A stretch of 40,133 nt of DNA from IMG/VR virus record IMGVR_UViG_3300028650_000004, positions 1 through 40,133 of that record. The stretch is one strand, 5' to 3'. Below, piece by piece: positions 1,393-37,776 of this stretch (the first letter of the stretch is position 1; every line of letters begins with the position of its first letter). Under the pieces are notes generated by a model. The model did no database searches. It was not told the DNA's origin and saw only the letters and a program-made list of their open reading frames with translations. This DNA is from a virus. The position numbers were made by a program, and so were the translations under genes.

Positions 1393-2064
1393 TCTCTACT
1401 CCTTTGGTGCTATTGGGGCGATCACCGAAATGCTTTTCAGACGCATTGTCATATGCAACAGCAGCTTCATGCTCGTCTAAAAAGTGGCCAGGATCGTGTT
1501 CTTTGAATTAATACAAATCTGCGCCATAAATTTTTGCTCTCGACTGTGGAAGCAAACACCAATATACTCAGACGAGCAATTGGACTGCTTTCTTTGAACG
1601 TGAGATTGTATACTATCAGTCCCCCACTTGCAGTTTTCTGGTGTGTAGTCACCATTGTTATCTATTCGGTGTATAGACAGTCCTTCTTGATAAGACGGAT
1701 ACATATCTTCAATAAAGTTTTCAATAGATAACCATCTATCACAAATCTTAATACCTCTTCCACCGTAGTGCTTGTATGATGGACAATCTTCATTAAATAT
1801 ACGCTTCTTCATGTCAGGCCATACAAAGTATAATGGATGATTAGTCATCCCATGTGTTGTATTCCTTCCTGCAATAGTGTCTCTTTGTAGACAGCCACAA
1901 GATTTAGTAATACCCTCACGGATGTCTTGGCTAACAACAGCGACTTCTTCCCCACAATCACACAAACACTTCCACATTACTTTCCCGTTTTTGTTACTTC
2001 CTCTTGATGTGACCAAGAGTCTTCCAAACCTCTGGTCAACTAAGTTTATAAATTTGCCCCGCAT
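1385..2064 (-). pseudogene. HNH homing endonuclease with AP2-type C-terminus, frameshifted
   Basis: Residues 1 to about 190 read as a free-standing HNH endonuclease: start MRGKFINLVDQRFGRLLV, a C-L-C-D-C-G ... S-C-G-C-L zinc motif, the Y-G-G-R-G-I-K-I-C-D-R-W motif, and the H-R-I-D-N-N-G-D-Y-T-P-E-N-C-K-W core. The frame then stops early at 1477, in the middle of the AP2-like DNA-binding domain. In another frame the expected end of the domain continues (GHFLDEHEAAVAYDN, then FGDRPNSTK) to a TAA at 1385-1387, which overlaps the next gene's ATG. One missing base near 1486-1489 (ctggc where ctgggc or cttggc is expected) explains this. With one base added the length is 681, the same as the paralogue at 7976. 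The truncated 195-residue product keeps the nuclease core. Confidence 0.85.
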
Positions 2065-2084: not shown

Positions 2085-2267
2085 TTACATAGATGCAACA
2101 GCGTCAACCAATCCCGTAAACAATTCATCTTCGCCATAGAAATCAGCAAGCAACTTTACGTCATTATACATGATATTCTGATAACGTGCAATACTTCGCA
2201 AGTAATCTTCCAAATCATGATAGCCTTGCTCATGAATCTTGTCAAGTGTTTGTTGGCTAATGTTCAT
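2085..2267 (-). CDS. hypothetical protein, 60 aa
   Basis: A 60-residue acidic, mostly helical protein (MNISQQTLDKIHEQGYHDLEDYL at its start, with FYGEDELFTGLVDAV near its end). It starts two bases after the stop of the gene at 2270-2449, so it is part of the leftward operon. No motif is recognised. Confidence 0.6.
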   Translation of the reverse strand: MNISQQTLDKIHEQGYHDLEDYLRSIARYQNIMYNDVKLLADFYGEDELFTGLVDAVASM

Positions 2268-3404: not shown

Positions 3405-3433
3405 ATTCTATAGCACACTCTTCATATTGTCAA
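3405..3433 (-). promoter_or_regulatory. strong sigma70-type promoter, leftward
   Basis: Read on the minus strand: TTGACA (3428-3433), 17 bases, TAGAAT (3405-3410). The -35 is perfect and the -10 has five of six bases. It is the main promoter of the leftward early operon and lies back to back with the rightward promoter at 3477. Confidence 0.8.
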
Positions 3434-3476
3434 CACATTTCTACATTCTTTGTGTTAATTTATTTATGTGTTGGTG

Positions 3477-3505
3477 TTGACAATTTAACAATTGTAGGAT
3501 ATAAT
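3477..3505 (+). promoter_or_regulatory. perfect consensus sigma70 promoter, rightward
   Basis: TTGACA (3477-3482), 17 bases, TATAAT (3500-3505): all 12 consensus bases with ideal spacing. The spacer holds AACAATTG, part of which recurs in the palindrome at the promoter at 35164. No gene follows for about 730 bases. The transcript instead covers the structured non-coding region 3512-4160. Confidence 0.85.
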
Positions 3506-3545
3506 ATATGTATGAGTTGAAGAGGGAAGCGATTCTCTTGGTTGT

Positions 3546-3574
3546 AGAATATAACACTAACTCTAGTGTGTCAA
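3546..3574 (-). promoter_or_regulatory. second leftward promoter, with inverted repeat in the spacer
   Basis: Read on the minus strand: TTGACA (3569-3574), 17 bases, TATTCT (3546-3551). The spacer carries the inverted repeat ACACTA/TAGTGT (3554-3569), which could be an operator or a hairpin of the opposite-strand RNA. The promoter points into the rightward promoter at 3477 and would give RNA antisense to the start of the non-coding transcript. Confidence 0.5.
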
Positions 3575-4129
3575 GCAATTGATGCACGACTTCACAGAAA
3601 TTTTTGACCACTTGTTCGTCTGTGTCGTAGCCATCGAAATACCATGTTGGCAAGGGTGGAGAAACTACTTAAAGAGATTTCGGGTGCTGGAACATCAGTT
3701 GCCCCCTGTTCAATCAGGATACTGTAGTGGGAAGGCCCGGTAAGAGGGGATGCACATCTTGAGAGATGCCCTTTAAACTTCCCATGTTGTTGTGTTCTTG
3801 CAAAGCACACCAATGCTAATGTTCCGACGGTTGATGCTAACGCATTCTGTCAATAGCTTCCTCTCCCCTGAACACGTTACAGGCGCATCTCTGATGCCTC
3901 TCTGCGTATAAGGGGAGAAATGCGCTAAGAACCTCGGGTTGATGTTATAAAGAACTAATATAAGAACTAAGTATACAACACAGTATAAGGCGCTTACAGC
4001 GCTAGTATACGTCTACTACCTGCCCTTCGGGCTAGTGTACACATCCTAGAGCATACCTCACGGTATGCATCCTCTCAGCGTAGACAACATTAGCTACAAA
4101 GCGCACATAAAATTAAACAACACACACAA

Positions 4130-4160
4130 AGCCCTCTCCTACAATGGATGAGGGCTATTT
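4130..4160 (+). terminator. hairpin terminator at the end of the noncoding transcript
   Basis: AGCCCTC (4130-4136) pairs with GAGGGCT (4150-4156), and TCC (4137-4139) can pair with GGA (4146-4148). ATTTCTC follows. The T-run is short, so termination may be partial. A new promoter starts only 25 bases downstream. Confidence 0.6.
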
Positions 4161-4180
4161 CTCATTGTTGAAGAAATGTG

Positions 4181-4208
4181 TTGACATCTGTAAATATTGT
4201 GGTAAGAT
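4181..4208 (+). promoter_or_regulatory. sigma70-type promoter, rightward
   Basis: TTGACA (4181-4186), 16 bases, TAAGAT (4203-4208). It restarts transcription after the hairpin at 4130 and serves the first rightward genes at 4239 and 4387. Confidence 0.6.
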
Positions 4209-5599: not shown

Positions 5600-5784
5600 T
5601 GATCGTAGAGCCACAACGTATCCAAGTATGTAAATACTGTGAAAAGAAACTAGACGAGGAGTATGTTGATGTAGGTGTGTGTCCTCGTTGTATTGATAAT
5701 ATGGAATACGAGGAATACGATAAAGAGGAAGATAAACTTTATTATGGCAATATCTTTGATGGCAGGGTCGAGGATGAGTATTGA
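5599..5784 (+). CDS. acidic zinc-ribbon protein, 61 aa
   Basis: Two Cys pairs, C-K-Y-C near residue 11 and C-P-R-C near residue 28, make a compact zinc knuckle. The rest is a very acidic Tyr-rich tail (MEYEEYDKEEDKLYYG). Such a charge pattern may allow binding to a basic partner, but this is a guess. It is coupled to both neighbours: the start overlaps the previous stop, and the stop TGA overlaps the TTG start of the lysin. Confidence 0.7.
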   Translation: MIVEPQRIQVCKYCEKKLDEEYVDVGVCPRCIDNMEYEEYDKEEDKLYYGNIFDGRVEDEY

Positions 5785-6233
5785 CTTTGGCAATTAAGCT
5801 ATTCCTGATAATAGCGTTAATGTTCCCCTCTTTGACATATGACCATGTTATTAATAATAGCAAAGCAGAAGAAATATATTGCTTGGCTACCGTCGTATAT
5901 TTTGAGTCAAGAGGAGAACATTTGCGTGGACAAATTGCTGTAGCTAATACGGTGTTGAACCGTAGCAAGAAGAGACGTAAGCCTGTTTGTTATATTATGT
6001 CGGAACGACATCAGTTCAGTTGGCATGGGAAGGCTAAGACGCCTACGGCGGATATGTTAGCAGCTTCGCTGCCAGTTGCTTATAATATGTTTATGAGTTA
6101 TAATAGTGAAGGGCATGTTGATGACACAGCAGGGGCTACACATTTCGCAACGAAACATGTACGTAATGCTTGGACAAGGGTGTTCAAGAAGACACTAACA
6201 TTAGGTTCACATTCATTCTACAAGGAGAGATAA
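5781..6233 (+). CDS. SleB-like cell wall hydrolase (endolysin), 150 aa
   Basis: Residues 30-148 match the SleB/Hydrolase_2 pattern: EIYCLATVVYFESRGE (catalytic-type Glu at about 42), GQIAVANTVLNR, P-V-C-Y-I, F-S-W and GATHFATKHVRNAW with a final H-S-F-Y. This family cleaves peptidoglycan glycan strands, so the product is the likely endolysin. Residues 5-19 are hydrophobic (IKLFLIIALMFPSLT) and may be a signal peptide or a signal-anchor. The start is TTG at 5781, overlapping the previous stop, with GAGG spaced well before it; no ATG is available in frame near the start. It is unusual for a lysin to sit directly before the primase gene. No classical holin or spanin is recognised nearby. Confidence 0.85.
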   Translation: MTLAIKLFLIIALMFPSLTYDHVINNSKAEEIYCLATVVYFESRGEHLRGQIAVANTVLNRSKKRRKPVCYIMSERHQFSWHGKAKTPTADMLAASLPVAYNMFMSYNSEGHVDDTAGATHFATKHVRNAWTRVFKKTLTLGSHSFYKER

Positions 6234-6236
6234 TCA

Positions 6237-7976
6237 TTGAAAATTGGAAAGAATCCTTGTCCTAAGTGTAGGGAAAAAGGACATGATGACAAAGGCGATA
6301 ACTTCTACTTCTATGGGGAGGGTTTGGGCGGGTATTGTTTCGCATGTTCTCACACCATTCTTTCTGACAGTGAACGGGAAGCCAGAGGCATTGATACAGT
6401 TGAAGAGGAGGAAGAAGTGTCTACACGAGAACGTATTACAGATGAAGAGAATGATAAAATTAAATCCTATACCGGAACGGACGGAAAAGGATTTCGAGGA
6501 ATTCGTAAAGAGATTAACCAGTTTTTTGGTGTTCGCTATCAATACGATGAAGAAAATGGGGAGCCGATCAAGGAGTATGTCCCAACAACCATCGACTCAG
6601 AACTTGTAGGCTATAAGACGCGCCTTTTCCCAAAGGACTTCTCACAACCAGTTGGCGTAGTTGGAAAGGATTGTGATCTCGTTGGGCAGTTCCGTTTCAA
6701 GAACAATAACCACACATGTCTAATTGTCGGAGGCGAGATTAAGCAACGTGCAGCGTATCAAATGCTTGTTGACGATCAGAAGCGCAGGGGCAAAGAAGAC
6801 TACGAGTCTATTGCTGTCGTATCCCCAACCATCGGAGAAAATGGTGCCTGGAAACAGGTACAGAAGCAATACTCATGGCTGTCACAATTCAAGAAGATCG
6901 TTGTGTGCATGGACATGGACGATGCAGGACAACTCGCAAACGAAGCAATCTGCAAGATTCTGCCTAAAGGCAAGTCATTCATTATGAAGATGTCTTTTAA
7001 TGATGCTGATGAATATATCAACCACGGAAAAGAGCAGGCTTTCATCAATGATTTCTGGAAAGCAAAGCAATGGACGCCGTCTGGCATTGTAGATAGTGAC
7101 CAAATCTATAGTGAAATTAAGGAACGAGCTAAAGTAGACAAGTTGCCATTTCCTCCAATGATGGAAGGTGTTAATCGTGCATTGGCAGGCGGAGTGAACT
7201 ACGGGTATATTTGTAACATTCTTGCCGGGAGTGGATCAGGGAAGACATCTGCAATCAACCAGTGTATTGCTTATTGGATGATTGATCTTGATCTTAACAT
7301 TGCGGTACTGTCCCTTGAGGCAGAGGCAGCAGAGTTTGGTGAGAACTTGCTATCACATTATATGGGCAAGAAGATTGCTCTTATTAAGGACAAAGAAGAA
7401 CGTATTGCTTTTGTGGGCAGCAAGGAGGCAGAGGATGCTGCTAATACTTTGTTCAAGCGGCAAGATGGAACAAGCCGCCTATACCTGCTTGATGATCGTG
7501 GGGATTACTCACAGTTGCAAGAAAAAGTCGAAGAGATGATTATCGCCTGCAACTGCAAGGTAATTTGTATTGATGTGCTGTCTGATGTTTTTGCAGGGAA
7601 GACAATTGAAGAAGTAGATAAGTGGATGGCATGGGAAAAGAAGATAGTCAAGCAGTATGGTGTAATTATTATTAATATCTCACACGTTAGAAAGTCTGGT
7701 AGCGGGGAGAAGGCTGCTTCGCAAGGGGCTTTCCTGACAGAAGAAAGCATTATCGGATCAGGAACACAATATCGTAGTGCGGGTGTAAACATTGCTTTGC
7801 AGCGAGATAAGAATAATCCAGACGAGATGATTAAGAACACCACAAGTGTTCATGTATTGAAGTCTCGTTCAACTGGGTGGACAGGTCTTGCTTGTGAAAT
7901 GTATTATGATTCTGCGACGCATACTTTGTGGGACAAGGTAGAGTACATGTCAATGCATGGGCCAAGGGATTTCTGA
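6237..7976 (+). CDS. T7 gp4-like primase-helicase, 579 aa
   Basis: This bifunctional replication protein makes primers and unwinds DNA at the fork. A zinc-binding domain lies at the N-terminus (CPKC at residues 8-11, CFAC at 34-37). A TOPRIM primase domain follows, with an acidic VGGEIKQRAAY segment and the metal-binding DMDDAG motif. The C-terminal RecA-like helicase starts near residue 310: Walker A AGSGSGKTS (about 330-338), LSLEAEAAE, a Walker B strand VICIDVLSDVF, and SHVRKSG. The length is close to T7 gp4 (566). The start is TTG at 6237, behind AAGGAG carried in the last codons of the lysin. The stop TGA overlaps the ATG of the HNH gene at 7976. Confidence 0.92.
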   Translation: MKIGKNPCPKCREKGHDDKGDNFYFYGEGLGGYCFACSHTILSDSEREARGIDTVEEEEEVSTRERITDEENDKIKSYTGTDGKGFRGIRKEINQFFGVRYQYDEENGEPIKEYVPTTIDSELVGYKTRLFPKDFSQPVGVVGKDCDLVGQFRFKNNNHTCLIVGGEIKQRAAYQMLVDDQKRRGKEDYESIAVVSPTIGENGAWKQVQKQYSWLSQFKKIVVCMDMDDAGQLANEAICKILPKGKSFIMKMSFNDADEYINHGKEQAFINDFWKAKQWTPSGIVDSDQIYSEIKERAKVDKLPFPPMMEGVNRALAGGVNYGYICNILAGSGSGKTSAINQCIAYWMIDLDLNIAVLSLEAEAAEFGENLLSHYMGKKIALIKDKEERIAFVGSKEAEDAANTLFKRQDGTSRLYLLDDRGDYSQLQEKVEEMIIACNCKVICIDVLSDVFAGKTIEEVDKWMAWEKKIVKQYGVIIINISHVRKSGSGEKAASQGAFLTEESIIGSGTQYRSAGVNIALQRDKNNPDEMIKNTTSVHVLKSRSTGWTGLACEMYYDSATHTLWDKVEYMSMHGPRDF

Positions 7977-8656
7977 TGGGTAAATTAATAGATATATCAG
8001 GCCAGCATTTTGGTCTGCTTACTATTGTTTGTAGGGAGGGTAATCAGCAGGGTTATTCTGGAACTATATGGAGATGTAGGTGTGAGTGTGGAAAGGAGGT
8101 TGTTGTATATAAAGGAAACCTTACAAGCGGAAAATCTTTATCTTGTGGATGTTTAGGTAATACGAGGAAGACAAAACACGGGATGTGTAAATCCTCGGCA
8201 TACTCGTCTTGGAGCGGAGCTATCCAGAGAACAACAAATCCAAAGAATGAAGAGTGGAATAACTATGGAGGAAGAGGAATTACAACGTGTAGAGAGTGGC
8301 GAAAGTCTTTTAAGACATTCTGGGATGAGATGGGAGAAACATGGGAAGAGGGCTTGACTTTAGATAGAATTAATGTTAATGGAAATTACTGCAAAGAAAA
8401 CTGCCGTTGGGCTACGGATACAGAACAGAGCCATAACCAAAGGAAGAAAAATAATTGCTCGTCTGCTTATAAGGGCGTGTATTGGAGCATTGTAGTGGGA
8501 AAGTGGTCTTCCAATATACAACAAAATAGAAAAAGAGAGCACTTAGGATATTTCTTTAATGAACTAGATGCAGGAACAGCCTATGACAACCGCTCAGAAG
8601 AGTTATATGGAGACAGGCCGAACGGAACAATAAAGATTAATTCAGAAATTGCTTGA
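7976..8656 (+). CDS. HNH homing endonuclease with AP2-like domain, 226 aa
   Basis: A free-standing mobile endonuclease. The N-terminal Cys motifs are C-R-C-E-C-G and S-C-G-C-L. The HNH core shows YGGRGITTCREW, then L-D-R-I-N-V-N-G-N-Y-C-K-E-N-C-R-W, where the usual His of an H-R-I-D motif is replaced by Asp. A C-terminal AP2-like DNA-binding domain ends with AYDNRSEELYGDRPNG. I chose the ATG at 7976, which overlaps the stop of the primase-helicase gene (TGATG); a longer frame starts inside that gene and is rejected. The position exactly at the end of a replication gene is typical of homing endonuclease insertion. The last codons form the -35 of the next promoter. Confidence 0.88.
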   Translation: MGKLIDISGQHFGLLTIVCREGNQQGYSGTIWRCRCECGKEVVVYKGNLTSGKSLSCGCLGNTRKTKHGMCKSSAYSSWSGAIQRTTNPKNEEWNNYGGRGITTCREWRKSFKTFWDEMGETWEEGLTLDRINVNGNYCKENCRWATDTEQSHNQRKKNNCSSAYKGVYWSIVVGKWSSNIQQNRKREHLGYFFNELDAGTAYDNRSEELYGDRPNGTIKINSEIA

Positions 8657-10420: not shown

Positions 10421-11089
10421 ATGGCATTGCCGCAAACTGTTTTTGTTGGTGAGAGGTATGGACGATTGGTTGTTGTAGGCTGGCGTAAAGATAAGCAAGG
10501 ATGGGAATGCATTTGCGATTGTGGAAACACTACGTATCAAAATACCTTTCACTTAAAAGTCGGTAATGTGCTGTCATGTGGTTGTTATAGAAAAGAATGT
10601 GATGTTCTTGATGGTTGGTCACAGACCCCTACGTGGTCGTCTTTCAGATCAATGCATCAGCGGTGTGATGGAGAAGATAAGCGCGGGGATTACCTTAGAA
10701 AAGGAATTGTTGTCTGTGAGAAGTGGGAATTGTCTCCAACTGGATTCTTTAACTTTTTAGACGACATGGGAGAGAGGCCAGAAGGAAGAACACTTGAGCG
10801 TAAAGACACAAACGGAAACTACTCACCAGAGAACTGCAAATGGGACACACCAAGTAATCAGGCATTTAATAGAGAGTTGTTTAAAAATAACAAATCAGGT
10901 GTAACAGGTGTATCTTTTGATAAATATAAAGGTAAATGGGTCGCTACTCTCCACAAAGAAGGAGAGACTGTCCTTAGAGAAACCTTCTTTGACTTTGATG
11001 AGGCTGTATTAGCAAGAAAAGAAGCAGAGCAAGAATACTATAAAGAGAAGATTGAGGAAACTAGACTAGCAACAGGAGGAGGAATCTAA
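10421..11089 (+). CDS. HNH homing endonuclease with AP2-like domain, 222 aa
   Basis: N-terminal C-I-C-D-C-G and S-C-G-C-Y zinc motifs, then a core of the form R-K-G-I-V-V-C-E-K-W in place of the usual Y-G-G-R-G-I, followed by L-E-R-K-D-T-N-G-N-Y-S-P-E-N-C-K-W, and a C-terminal AP2-like stretch NKSGVTGVSFDKYKGKW. It is the most divergent HNH paralogue here. It sits one base before the DNA polymerase start, and its final codons (GGAGGAGGAA) form the ribosome binding site for the polymerase. This suggests the mobile gene and the polymerase start have become adapted to each other. Confidence 0.85.
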   Translation: MALPQTVFVGERYGRLVVVGWRKDKQGWECICDCGNTTYQNTFHLKVGNVLSCGCYRKECDVLDGWSQTPTWSSFRSMHQRCDGEDKRGDYLRKGIVVCEKWELSPTGFFNFLDDMGERPEGRTLERKDTNGNYSPENCKWDTPSNQAFNRELFKNNKSGVTGVSFDKYKGKWVATLHKEGETVLRETFFDFDEAVLARKEAEQEYYKEKIEETRLATGGGI

Positions 11090-13196: not shown

Positions 13197-13888
13197 TGAA
13201 ACACTCCGAAATTAAAATTCCTACGCCAGAGGGCTTCCCTTACAAGTTACCAGATGGAAATTGGACACAACAAATTGTTAATGCTACTCTCGTTGACAAA
13301 GGCCCATATTTTCTCCATCCCGAAGGGAGCGTATACTTGGGCCTATCCGTAACAGAACAATGTGAACTAGCCAAAATGAGGCGTCCTGTGGGGAAGATGC
13401 CTAAATGGAAAACTAGCCAAATGAGAGTAGCAACTAAGAATGACTATGAGAAACTTGTATTAGCATGTACAGAAGCATTAGTTCATGCTTGGTATGATAC
13501 ATCTCAGAGACTTGATTATGTTAATGTTTATGTTAAACTGCCGTTTAATTTCAAATCTTTTTATGATAAAACTTTACCAAGATGTTTCATATTAGGATAT
13601 GAGGATTTTAATATCTTTGTCTCATGGAGGGTAAACAGAATCATAGATTGGTTATACGCAAAAGGATATTCACATTATGATTCACAATCTTTGCGGAAGA
13701 GTATGTGGGGTATTTTGCAAGAACAAGAAAAAATCCAATTATATAATGATGTAGCGGTAGATCAGAGCATACTTGAATTATATTCCGATATTATAAATTC
13801 TTCTATTGGTAAACAAGGGAAGAGAAGATACAGTAAAAGCACCATTAATGAAAATAAAAAGGAGACTGTTGAGTTATGCGAGAAATAA
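13196..13888 (+). CDS. hypothetical protein with changed base composition, 230 aa
   Basis: The start MKHSEIKIPTPEGFPYKLPD overlaps the polymerase stop. The first 90 or so residues use codons like the neighbours. From about 13480 onward the sequence turns clearly more AT-rich and the protein becomes rich in Tyr, Asn, Ile and Lys (for example YVNVYVKLPFNF, GYEDFNIFVSW). The gene ends by overlapping the HNH gene at 13876 by 13 bases. No domain is recognised. The composition shift suggests a fusion of an old 5' part with newer DNA, possibly acquired with the HNH gene. Confidence 0.65.
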   Translation: MKHSEIKIPTPEGFPYKLPDGNWTQQIVNATLVDKGPYFLHPEGSVYLGLSVTEQCELAKMRRPVGKMPKWKTSQMRVATKNDYEKLVLACTEALVHAWYDTSQRLDYVNVYVKLPFNFKSFYDKTLPRCFILGYEDFNIFVSWRVNRIIDWLYAKGYSHYDSQSLRKSMWGILQEQEKIQLYNDVAVDQSILELYSDIINSSIGKQGKRRYSKSTINENKKETVELCEK

Positions 13889-14577
13889 AGGACATTACCG
13901 GAGATGTGTTTGGTAGGTTGGTTGCTTTAGAATATGTGGGAAGAAATAGGCGCAATAAACCTTTGTGGATATGCAAGTGTGAATGTGGTAATATACACAT
14001 TGTCGACATGTACTGTCTATTAGCAGGAAGTTGTAAGTCCTGTGGGTGTTTAAATAGAGGCATGCCGAGTAGGACAAAGCATGGAATGTACAAGCACAGT
14101 GCTTATAATGCGTGGGCAAATATTAGAGGTCGAGTGTATAACAAAGATAATCCTGCATGGAAAGACTATGGTGGAAGAGGCATTACTATGTGTCGGGAGT
14201 GGGAAGATTCTTTTAAAAACTTTTGGACAGACATGGGAGATACATATCGTGAAGGGCTTTCGCTAGATCGTATCGACACTAACGGAAATTATTGCAAAGA
14301 AAATTGTCGTTGGGTAGAGTGGGATATACAGATGCATAATAAGAGAAAGCGTGGTGGCTGCTCTTCAAAGCACATGGTATTTTATTATTATAAAGATTTT
14401 GGTAAGTATGGTGCACAAATCACTTACAATAAGACAAGGGAAAATCTTGGCTATTTTCTGAATGAGCTTGATGCAGCCACAGCCTACGACAATCGCTCGG
14501 AGCAGTTATACGGCGACAGACCCAACGGTACAACAAAGATTGCTAAAGAAATGCTTGACAAGAGTGTTGAAGTATGA
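13876..14577 (+). CDS. HNH homing endonuclease with AP2-like domain, 233 aa
   Basis: A paralogue of the gene at 7976. It has zinc motifs C-K-C-E-C-G and S-C-G-C-L, the core YGGRGITMCREW and L-D-R-I-D-T-N-G-N-Y-C-K-E-N-C-R-W, and the ending AYDNRSEQLYGDRPNG. The C-terminal protein sequence is nearly the same as that of the 7976 gene, while the DNA differs at many third positions, so the duplication is not recent or the copies came separately. It overlaps the previous gene by 13 bases. The last codons contain the -35 element of the promoter at 14555. Confidence 0.87.
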   Translation: MREIKDITGDVFGRLVALEYVGRNRRNKPLWICKCECGNIHIVDMYCLLAGSCKSCGCLNRGMPSRTKHGMYKHSAYNAWANIRGRVYNKDNPAWKDYGGRGITMCREWEDSFKNFWTDMGDTYREGLSLDRIDTNGNYCKENCRWVEWDIQMHNKRKRGGCSSKHMVFYYYKDFGKYGAQITYNKTRENLGYFLNELDAATAYDNRSEQLYGDRPNGTTKIAKEMLDKSVEV

Positions 14578-34440: not shown

Positions 34441-35136
34441 TTATAAACCATGTTTTTCAGAATATCCCGCACCATCGGAATTAAGTTTCTCAATTGCGTG
34501 TGTTCTTGCAGCGCATGCAAGTTCAAAGGCAACGTTATTACCGTACTTCCTAGCAGAAAATGATTTTGATTCGTGCTTACCGTCTAATGACCTCCAGTGA
34601 GCAAACCACCTATTATCTTCTGCATTAAAGCCAACACCTGTAACTCCAGATGTGTTGGACTTTGTTTTCCTCCTATTCCTTGCCTGTTTCTTTCGTGTTT
34701 CCCATTTACAGTTTTCTTTGCAGTAGTTCCCATCTACATCAATACGCTCTAATGTTGCGCCTGTAAAATACGTGTCCTGCAAATCTCCAGCAAATTCTTC
34801 TAAGGATTCCCAACAAAACTTAATTCCACGACCACCATAGTCTTTGTAGTCGGTGTCATTGGTATTCTCACAACGGTGTCTAGCCCCATGAAAACAATGC
34901 CAAAACGGTGTGTAGTAAAGGCCGTGGGTTGTTCTATCGTATTCAGACATAACTTCTGTCTTATAGCAGCCACAACTTGTTGTATTTCCAGAGGTTACAT
35001 TATTAACTCTACGCGTAACCTCTGTTCCACACTCACAAACGAATACCCAGAATGTCGTGCCATTCTCTGAATGAGAAAACTCTTTTGCTGTGAGTCGGCC
35101 ATATTTATTACCGGCATAGTCTTTACGTTTTGTCAT
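34441..35136 (-). CDS. HNH homing endonuclease with AP2-like domain in the tail operon, 231 aa
   Basis: The start at 35136 (MTKRKDYAGNKYGRLTAKEF) follows GAAGAGGATGCC; a longer frame starts next to the promoter and is rejected. It has zinc motifs C-E-C-G and S-C-G-C-Y, the core YGGRGIKFCWES, L-E-R-I-D-V-D-G-N-Y-C-K-E-N-C-K-W, and an AP2-like end (SNTSGVTGVGFNAEDNRWFA). Unlike the structural genes around it, it has its own perfect promoter (35164-35192) overlapped by a palindrome. It lies between the tail terminator gene and the tail tube gene, an insertion into an otherwise compact tail operon. Confidence 0.87.
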   Translation of the reverse strand: MTKRKDYAGNKYGRLTAKEFSHSENGTTFWVFVCECGTEVTRRVNNVTSGNTTSCGCYKTEVMSEYDRTTHGLYYTPFWHCFHGARHRCENTNDTDYKDYGGRGIKFCWESLEEFAGDLQDTYFTGATLERIDVDGNYCKENCKWETRKKQARNRRKTKSNTSGVTGVGFNAEDNRWFAHWRSLDGKHESKSFSARKYGNNVAFELACAARTHAIEKLNSDGAGYSEKHGL

Positions 35137-35148
35137 GGCATCCTCTTC

Positions 35149-35166
35149 AATTGTTATACAACAATT
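35149..35166. promoter_or_regulatory. palindromic operator overlapping the HNH promoter
   Basis: AATTGTT (35149-35155), four bases, AACAATT (35160-35166): a perfect inverted repeat. It overlaps the -10 element and the expected transcription start, the classical place for a repressor. AACAATTG also occurs in the spacer of the promoter at 3477. Confidence 0.6.
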
Positions 35167-35192
35167 ATACCACAACTTTAACAGTATGTCAA
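35164..35192 (-). promoter_or_regulatory. perfect consensus sigma70 promoter for the HNH gene
   Basis: Read on the minus strand: TTGACA (35187-35192), 17 bases, TATAAT (35164-35169). All 12 consensus bases are present. It sits within the late structural cluster, between the tail terminator gene and the HNH gene. Confidence 0.85.
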
Positions 35193-36480: not shown

Positions 36481-36945
36481 TTAATAGTTACTGAAGTAGT
36501 TATAGCCGTCTTCTTCGATGTCGGGAACATTGTATAGCGACTTATCATCATCACGGTAGCTATCCTTCGGATAATTGATGATGCGTTTTTGTACAAGGGT
36601 AGAATCTTGTAGATTGGCTTGGACATCCAAAAGGTCTTGGCCTCCTACATAAATTCCTGCTGTAGCATTATATGTTGGGTTGTTTACTACTTCCTTCAGG
36701 AAGCGCATATACTGGTTGAAAACAGTGTCACCATAAAATTCCAGCTTATCTAGGCGCTCATGGCCCGAGTAGGCCATTCTGGCAAGAATAAATTGTGCAC
36801 ATTGCTTAGTTGCTGCATTCTCGTTGTTGTTATTTACAGATAATGAGTACGTAATTTCAGCAGTAGTTAAGAATGCAATATCTGAAGTGTCCCCAATATT
36901 AAGGCGTACCCTGTCTTCTGCTGTGCTTAGGTCAAGTGTCGCCAT
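36481..36945 (-). CDS. head-tail connector (adaptor) protein, 154 aa
   Basis: The protein (MATLDLSTAEDRVRLNIGDT) opens with the R-x-x-I/L-G-D-T segment and then FLTTAEITYSLSVNNNNENA and a helix with KQCAQFILARMAYSG, as in gp6/gp15-like adaptors with helical rings that join the portal. The C-terminal tail is acidic and Tyr-rich. Its start lies inside the end of the GIY-YIG gene, which thus carries its ribosome binding site (AAGGAGCCACATGG region, partly weak). Confidence 0.7.
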   Translation of the reverse strand: MATLDLSTAEDRVRLNIGDTSDIAFLTTAEITYSLSVNNNNENAATKQCAQFILARMAYSGHERLDKLEFYGDTVFNQYMRFLKEVVNNPTYNATAGIYVGGQDLLDVQANLQDSTLVQKRIINYPKDSYRDDDKSLYNVPDIEEDGYNYFSNY

Positions 36946-37687
36946 GTGGCTCCTTATTATTGTTTGCTATGTATTGTTGTACGAATGCTACTACTTCGTG
37001 GTATGGGGCTGTTGTGCTTTCTCGTTTAAAACCTTCTAGATGCGAAGTAGCAGAATCAGCTGTGAATGTCTCTTTCAGGGTATTCTCTAGTTGCTGAATA
37101 AACTTACCATCCATTTCATCACTAACAAAGGACTCTGTAATTAAATAACCTTCACGATTTAAGTTTTTAGTGTGGCTTCTCGTCCTAGCCTTTAGGTTTC
37201 TTGTTATACCAAATCCAGTGAAACTGTGCTGGCAATTTACGATATTGTGGATGTATAATTTTGCTGGCTTGCCTGGATTGAACCCAGTATCCATACACAG
37301 GCTACAGCCACAGCCTCTAAGTAGTGTTCTAGGGGCAATTAGAAAATCCCCGTGTACTTTACACGTTACAATAACTTTTTCGTCATAAGTCACATATTCT
37401 ACTTTTGATAAATCGTACTTTGTTTGGTCAACAACTTGCTCTAACTTATAAATACCTTCTTGTTTAGTGAGCCGATTATTAAGTCCTCGTTCTGCATCAC
37501 AACACTTTTTGCATCCACGCCCTTTTGTTAAATGATCTGGTCTAGACATGAACGAACCGTGTATCGGACAAATGATCTCTACCTTTATGTTGTTGTTTAC
37601 ATATACAACACTGGAGTAGTCATATCCTTTATCTTTGTTTGCGAGAGTCACCTTTGCAATAAACTCTTCTCTTGTTAGCTTTCTCAT
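36932..37687 (-). CDS. GIY-YIG-type homing endonuclease with two zinc repeats, 251 aa
   Basis: I place the start at 37687 (MRKLTREEFIAKVTLANKDK). Residues 1-130 hold two copies of a repeat of the type Y-D-Y-S-x-V-x-Y-V-x-x-x-x-K-V-x-I-x-C-x-x-H-G-x-F ending in G-C-x-x-C, likely zinc-binding DNA-contact modules (DUF723-like, name from memory). Residues 150-240 show a GIY-YIG nuclease: KLYIHNIV, then FTGFGITRNLKARTRSH, with a later Glu in QQLENTLKETF. The gene has its own promoter and lies between the capsid and connector genes; it overlaps the connector start by 14 bases. The leader has hairpins (37695-37736) that may control translation. Confidence 0.8.
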   Translation of the reverse strand: MRKLTREEFIAKVTLANKDKGYDYSSVVYVNNNIKVEIICPIHGSFMSRPDHLTKGRGCKKCCDAERGLNNRLTKQEGIYKLEQVVDQTKYDLSKVEYVTYDEKVIVTCKVHGDFLIAPRTLLRGCGCSLCMDTGFNPGKPAKLYIHNIVNCQHSFTGFGITRNLKARTRSHTKNLNREGYLITESFVSDEMDGKFIQQLENTLKETFTADSATSHLEGFKRESTTAPYHEVVAFVQQYIANNNKEPHGDT

Positions 37688-37694
37688 ATTGTTC

Positions 37695-37736
37695 CCCACT
37701 AAGAATTGGTGGGCTATCTTGTGTAGTGGCACAAGA
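37695..37736 (-). promoter_or_regulatory. leader hairpins before the GIY-YIG endonuclease
   Basis: On the minus strand TCTTGTG/CACAAGA (37717-37736, 7 pairs, 6-base loop) is followed by CCCAC/GTGGG (37695-37713, 9-base loop). The GTGGG arm is next to and part of the weak ribosome binding site (GTGGGGAACAAT before the ATG). Folding would hide it. Confidence 0.6.
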
Positions 37737-37776
37737 AGGAGGATCAGTCCGTTCGCCCAATTCATTAAAAACAAAC

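What the first reader, a model, noticed from the sequence alone, without database searches (positions are those of the whole stretch)
3477..4160. Large, highly structured noncoding RNA candidate between the two early operons
About 650 bases have no credible gene on either strand, yet begin with a promoter that has all 12 consensus bases and end with a hairpin terminator, after which a new promoter restarts transcription for the coding genes. At least ten perfect helices can be drawn along the + strand, including a three-way junction (GTCTAC 4011-4016 with GTAGAC 4080-4085 enclosing two hairpins) and a nested long-range helix (TCTCCCCT 3862-3869 with AGGGGAGA 3911-3918). Size, phage setting and density of structure are like the GOLLD and ROOL families of large ornate phage RNAs. 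I could not compare sequences, so it may be a member of a known class or a new one.
Basis: partly seen in the sequence, partly recalled or inferred. Interest (0 to 1): 0.85.

Follow-up and report, generated by a model that had tools for sequence, protein, structure and literature searches.

The report
New large structured phage noncoding RNA
A roughly 650-base stretch with no protein gene, in an uncultured large phage, has its own promoter and makes an RNA whose folded shape is preserved by matched mutations in a distant relative; it belongs to none of the catalogued RNA families, so it looks like a new kind of big phage RNA of unknown job.

Summary
Window 3477-4160 has a 12/12 sigma-70 promoter, no conserved ORF and a terminal hairpin. 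Folding energy of the single sequence is only modest and does not favour a strand (z -2.7 plus, -2.6 minus). The decisive evidence is one diverged homologue at the same gene position in an 80 kb phage contig (L003, 62% identity over 420 aligned columns). The consensus fold of the pair is far better than column-shuffled alignments on the plus strand (z -7.4; minus -3.3). Seventy pairs in 14 helices are all kept in both phages, 17 by changes on both sides; sliding partners by 1-3 columns leaves at most 1. No Rfam family matches; GOLLD and group I intron are not met, and ROOL is unmatched. In L003 an HNH endonuclease gene sits inside the 3' domain. I read it as a stand-alone early RNA gene acting in trans, a new family resembling GOLLD/ROOL in size and setting only. 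Function, expression and oligomerisation are untested; the family is known from two lineages.

The parts
3477..3505 (+). sigma-70 promoter TTGACA-17-TATAAT of the RNA gene
   Evidence: 12/12 consensus; homologous position in L003 has 11/12, TTGACT-17-TATAAT at L003 626-654
3512..4160 (+). structured noncoding RNA, about 650 nt
   Evidence: no conserved ORF; pair fold z -7.4; 70 pairs kept in both sequences, 17 double changes
3514..3563 (+). 5' three-way domain: GAGT/ACTC closing stem, GAGGGAA-GCGA-TTCTCTT hairpin with GNRA tetraloop, and GTTGTA/TATAAC hairpin
   Evidence: all 17 pairs kept in L003, one double and four single-sided changes
3593..3624 (+). hairpin CACAGA/TCTGTG around a 20-nt loop AATTTTTGACC(A/C)CTTGTTCG with one difference between the two phages
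   Evidence: inner pair A-U to G-C double change; 19 of 20 loop bases identical
3630..3651 (+). helix GCCA/TGGC (GTCT/AGAC in L003)
   Evidence: two of four pairs change on both sides
3725..3818 (+). central three-way junction: TAG/CTA closing stem, arm TGGGAAG/CTTCCCA with inner GAGGGG/CCCTTT and CATC/GATG, and arm TGTTG/CAATG capped by invariant CTTGCAAAGCAC
   Evidence: 10 double changes over five helices, no broken pair; covariance model R1
3855..3926 (+).
   Evidence: three double changes, none broken
4011..4085 (+). junction GTCTAC/GTAGAC enclosing two hairpins; in L003 the same hexamers flank the bulk of an HNH endonuclease gene
   Evidence: predicted fold of window; L003 1142-1147 and about 1833-1838
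4131..4157 (+). terminal hairpin AGCCCTC...GAGGGCT, probable terminator with weak U-tract
   Evidence: folds alone at -17.8 kcal/mol; L003 counterpart 1909-1934 has 11 pairs and is called terminator-like
4181..4208 (+). promoter of the downstream early genes
   Evidence: 10/12, extended TG; shares AAATGTGTTGACA with the leftward promoter
3405..3433 (-). promoter of the leftward early genes, back to back with the RNA promoter
   Evidence: TTGACA-17-TAGAAT, 11/12

Best explanation
The stretch is a stand-alone early phage RNA gene. Host RNA polymerase starts at the perfect promoter at 3477-3505, makes about 650 nt and stops at the hairpin 4131-4157; the downstream protein genes have their own promoter. 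The RNA folds into at least three helical domains and is not translated. It most likely acts in trans as a folded object, a scaffold or decoy that binds a host or phage factor (or copies of itself) through its invariant loops (AAUUUUUGACCnCUUGUUCG and CUUGCAAAGCAC). Promoter, lack of a conserved ORF and conserved fold are shown by computation; early transcription, termination and trans action are inferred; the bound partner is unknown.
For: 12/12 promoter, 11/12 at the same place in L003. Syntenic homologue between leftward genes (homologue of window 2085-2267) and the rightward DUF7338 and primase genes. Within window 1.8-4.76 kb the RNA is the only stretch with detectable nucleotide similarity to L003. 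Consensus fold z -7.4 on plus, -3.3 on minus. 70/70 pairs kept, 17 double changes, at most 1 when slid. Local stems with two or more double changes: 10 against 3.3 +/- 1.8, 0 of 120 shuffles. Gap lengths rule out a shared reading frame. Hairpin end in both phages. An HNH gene inserted in the 3' part of L003 leaves the conserved helices intact.
Against: Only two distinct sequences, and the counted structure was chosen with both in view. Single-sequence folding is no better on this strand than on the other. No expression data. The window U-tract is weak, so some read-through into the downstream genes is possible. The segment 3655-3722 and most of the 3' domain (3930-4130) cannot be aligned with confidence.
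Confidence: 0.6

Rival explanations
1. A long structured leader acting in cis: the RNA is the 5' part of the rightward early transcript and controls, by attenuation or anti-termination at the imperfect terminator, how much polymerase reaches the early genes.
For: It lies upstream of the rightward early genes in both phages; the window terminator has a weak U-tract and is not called; L003 shows no sigma-70 site of 9/12 or better on the plus strand between its terminal hairpin and the next gene.
Against: In the window a separate promoter follows the hairpin. 650 nt with many domains is far larger than usual phage leader elements (general knowledge).
Confidence: 0.17
2. A replication-origin transcript: the RNA primes or regulates DNA replication, as RNA II does in ColE1, with the leftward promoter-like site inside its 5' end making an antisense regulator.
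For: Divergent-operon junction near replication genes; cumulative GC skew is minimal here; a 10/12 leftward promoter-like site lies at the same alignment position inside the RNA in both phages (window 3574-3546, L003 725-697).
Against: Skew simply follows gene direction and flips again at about 23 kb where genes flip. The repeats are covarying RNA helices, not repeated DNA sites. No R-loop evidence.
Confidence: 0.1
3. A ribozyme or relic of a mobile intron: the RNA is a self-splicing or self-cleaving element whose homing endonuclease survives in L003.
For: L003 has a 239-aa HNH gene inside the 3' domain, between GTCTAC and GTAGAC, an arrangement like intron-encoded ORFs; related HNH proteins are scattered in these genomes.
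Against: The group I model finds a real intron above cut-off in the L003 genome but nothing in this RNA; no group II or other ribozyme family in the Rfam scans. The unit has its own promoter and end hairpin and interrupts no recognisable gene.
Confidence: 0.08
4. It codes for small proteins and the RNA structure is incidental.
For: TTG-start minus-strand ORFs of 70 and 73 aa exist.
Against: Frame-breaking gaps against L003; plus-strand helices covary much more than minus.
Confidence: 0.02

Closest known systems
GOLLD RNA (RF02032)
   Same: Phage setting, several hundred nt, many helices, function unknown
   Different: No match in window, L003 or six related records; no tRNA nearby; lies at an early divergent promoter region
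ROOL RNA (RF03087)
   Same: Length about 650 nt (ROOL env-120 is 659 nt, PMC12286853), phage-borne, dense structure
   Different: No match at E<=10 in the full Rfam scans or directly (where no control rang); not near tRNAs; cage formation untested
Group I introns with HNH ORFs in phages
   Same: Structured RNA with an HNH gene in its 3' part (L003 only)
   Different: Model RF00028 finds introns elsewhere in the L003 genome but not here; no interrupted gene
PAK_P3 sRNA1 and sRNA2 (PMC4933390)
   Same: Noncoding RNAs of a phage from the broader group to which the primase of this phage is related (PAK_P1, 43% identity)
   Different: About 100 nt, late, one between hypothetical genes and one between tRNAs; models R1 and R2 find no convincing match in PAK_P1 (R2 none, R1 E 0.6)

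Membership tests
GOLLD | Match to covariance model RF02032 | tested here: not met
   No match at E<=10
GOLLD | Closeness to tRNA genes (frequent, not universal) | tested here: not met
   No tRNA in the 40 kb window or in L003/L008/L013
GOLLD | Homo-oligomeric cage | not testable with these tools
   Needs cryo-EM
ROOL | Match to covariance model RF03087 | tested here: not met
   No match in all-Rfam scans of window, window region and L003; the direct search gave none either but no control genome rang
ROOL | Homo-oligomeric cage | not testable with these tools
   Needs cryo-EM
Group I intron | Match to RF00028 core | tested here: not met
   No match in the window or at the L003 RNA, while the same search finds one above cut-off at G001:9938-10198
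Group I intron | Interrupts a gene or RNA that splicing restores | tested here: not met
   Own promoter and end hairpin in an intergenic position
Conserved structured RNA (general) | Compensatory changes preserving helices in a diverged homologue | tested here: met
   17 pairs with both sides changed, none of 70 broken; pair fold z -7.4
Conserved structured RNA (general) | Transcribed as a discrete RNA | not testable with these tools
   No transcript data for this phage

The most novel reading that the evidence does not exclude
First two members of a new class of large phage RNA that folds and acts as an RNA machine or RNA-only assembly, with the palindromic UUGCAA in the invariant CUUGCAAAGCAC loop and the near-invariant 20-nt loop as intermolecular contacts.
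Probability: 0.25. Interest if true: 0.85.

Novelty: new variant of a known kind. Interest (0 to 1): 0.6.

Why it matters
Large structured noncoding RNAs of bacteria and phages with unknown function are few (GOLLD, ROOL, OLE), and these three turned out to self-assemble (PMC12286853). Another, unrelated phage family placed at the early divergent promoter would help to ask whether such assembly is general and what large RNAs do early in infection. The homologue pair gives a helix map that can be tested directly.

Tried and rejected
Motif scans of viral contigs (and the too tight) and of genome contigs, filtered with models R1 and R2: only the known loci scored; the rest at E>=0.1 share just the selected motif. 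The extra loci were read directly and are not homologous. R1/R2 on whole records of relatives including Felix O1 and PAK_P1: none convincing. BLASTN of the phage collection: none for the window; one 53-nt E 0.5 hit for L003, taken as chance. The contig behind L001 is 100% identical over the fetched part and adds no comparison. GC-skew minimum as sign of an origin: explained by gene direction. The full-length two-sequence fold with ribosum scoring was set aside because its covariance term dominated. Candidate pseudoknots, such as GGGT/GCCC (columns 146-149/232-235, kept with two double changes), are not above background.

Full report
Source. The window is a 40,133-base IMG/VR virus record. Its primase/helicase is 43-44% identical to Pseudomonas phages of the PAK_P1/PaP1 group, and the DUF7338 gene downstream of the RNA has about 30% identity to genes of Felix O1-like phages. 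Relatives in IMG/VR have contigs of up to 80-89 kb, so this is probably about half a genome.

Observation. Between leftward genes and rightward early genes lies 3477-4160. It begins with a 12/12 promoter. Apart from TTG-start minus-strand ORFs of 70 and 73 aa there is no ORF of 60 aa or more inside it. It ends in a stable hairpin. The downstream promoter at 4181 is 10/12. The leftward promoter at 3433-3405 and the downstream rightward promoter both carry AAATGTGTTGACA, found nowhere else in the window followed by a -10-like site.

Homologue. A contig 100% identical over the stretch gives no information. A contig of 80,014 bases whose primase is 96% identical carries a diverged copy at the same place between homologous genes: promoter 11/12, copy from about L003 661, terminal hairpin 1909-1934. 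Over 420 aligned columns identity is 62%. Within window 1.8-4.76 kb this is the only stretch with nucleotide similarity to L003.

Structure. The consensus fold of the two sequences (535 columns) has energy -82.5 against -42.1 +/- 5.4 for column-shuffled alignments (z -7.4); the reverse strand gives z -3.3. A hand-checked set of 70 pairs in 14 helices is fully kept in both; 17 pairs changed on both sides; sliding partners by 1-3 columns gives at most one such pair. Because the set was chosen with both sequences in view, the shuffled folds and the stem census (10 local stems with two or more double changes, 3.3 +/- 1.8 in shuffles, 0 of 120) are the fairer tests. Clearest is TGGGAAG/CTTCCCA against TAGGAGA/TCTCCTG, three double changes. 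The central domain is a three-way junction whose closing stem TAG/CTA is AGC/GCT in L003, all three pairs doubly changed. The 5' domain is a three-way unit with a GCGA tetraloop. A 20-nt loop AATTTTTGACC(A/C)CTTGTTCG and a loop CTTGCAAAGCAC are nearly or fully invariant and are the likely contact sites (inference).

The HNH gene. In L003 an ORF of 239 aa (1115-1834) lies in the 3' domain. Its protein is 52% identical over 179 residues to the protein of window 1477-2064, which is an HNH endonuclease by PHROGs. GTCTAC (L003 1142-1147) and GTAGAC (about 1833-1838), the same hexamers that close the junction in the window, lie on either side of the bulk of the gene, and the bases after it (GTAGACAACA, then GCTACA) resemble the window. 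Inference: a homing gene was inserted in a loop, as in introns, without destroying the conserved part.

Families. No Rfam match at gathering thresholds in the window, and at E<=10 only sub-threshold matches to unrelated families in the window region and L003. GOLLD gives nothing; ROOL gives nothing, though no control rang in that direct search. The group I model finds an intron above cut-off elsewhere in the L003 genome but not this RNA. No tRNAs nearby. GOLLD and ROOL are phage-borne, often near tRNA islands, and form cages (PMC12286853).

Distribution. Motif scans and covariance searches in IMG/VR, the GTDB genome set and whole records of relatives found no third member. There is no BLASTN hit for the window in 50,697 phage records. 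These scans need exact short motifs, so more diverged members could have been missed.

Function. Shown by computation: promoter match, conserved fold, lack of a conserved ORF, conserved gene position. Inferred: early transcription, discrete RNA, action in trans. A cis leader, an origin transcript and a ribozyme remain possible in that order. Confidence that it is a real conserved structured RNA: about 0.93; that it acts in trans as a stand-alone RNA: about 0.6.

Noticed in passing
window 3405-3440 (-) and 4174-4208 (+): The two early promoters flanking the RNA share AAATGTGTTGACA upstream of and including the -35 box; L003 has the same string for its leftward promoter. Probably a coordinated early promoter signature.
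   Followed up: partly
window 3574-3546 (-) and L003 725-697 (-): A 10/12 leftward promoter-like site lies inside the RNA 5' end at the same alignment position in both phages; possible antisense transcript.
   Followed up: partly
window 1477-2064 (-), 7928-8656, 10421-11089, 13876-14577, 34441-35175 (-), 36932-37774 (-): Six HNH-type endonuclease genes in 40 kb by PHROGs, five of one family (phrog_374) and one best matched by phrog_681, a heavy load of homing-type genes.
   Followed up: partly
genome of L003 (G001:C1 9938-10198 - and 57745-57928 -): One group I intron above cut-off and a second sub-threshold match in the relative, away from the RNA.
   Followed up: no
L003 1963-2015: Strong inverted repeat AAATACAACACAT...ATGTGTTGTATTT followed by T's just after the terminal hairpin, possibly a second terminator or an operator.
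   Followed up: no
window 5781-6233 (+): A cell wall hydrolase (Hydrolase_2, PF07486) lies directly upstream of the primase gene in the rightward operon.
   Followed up: no
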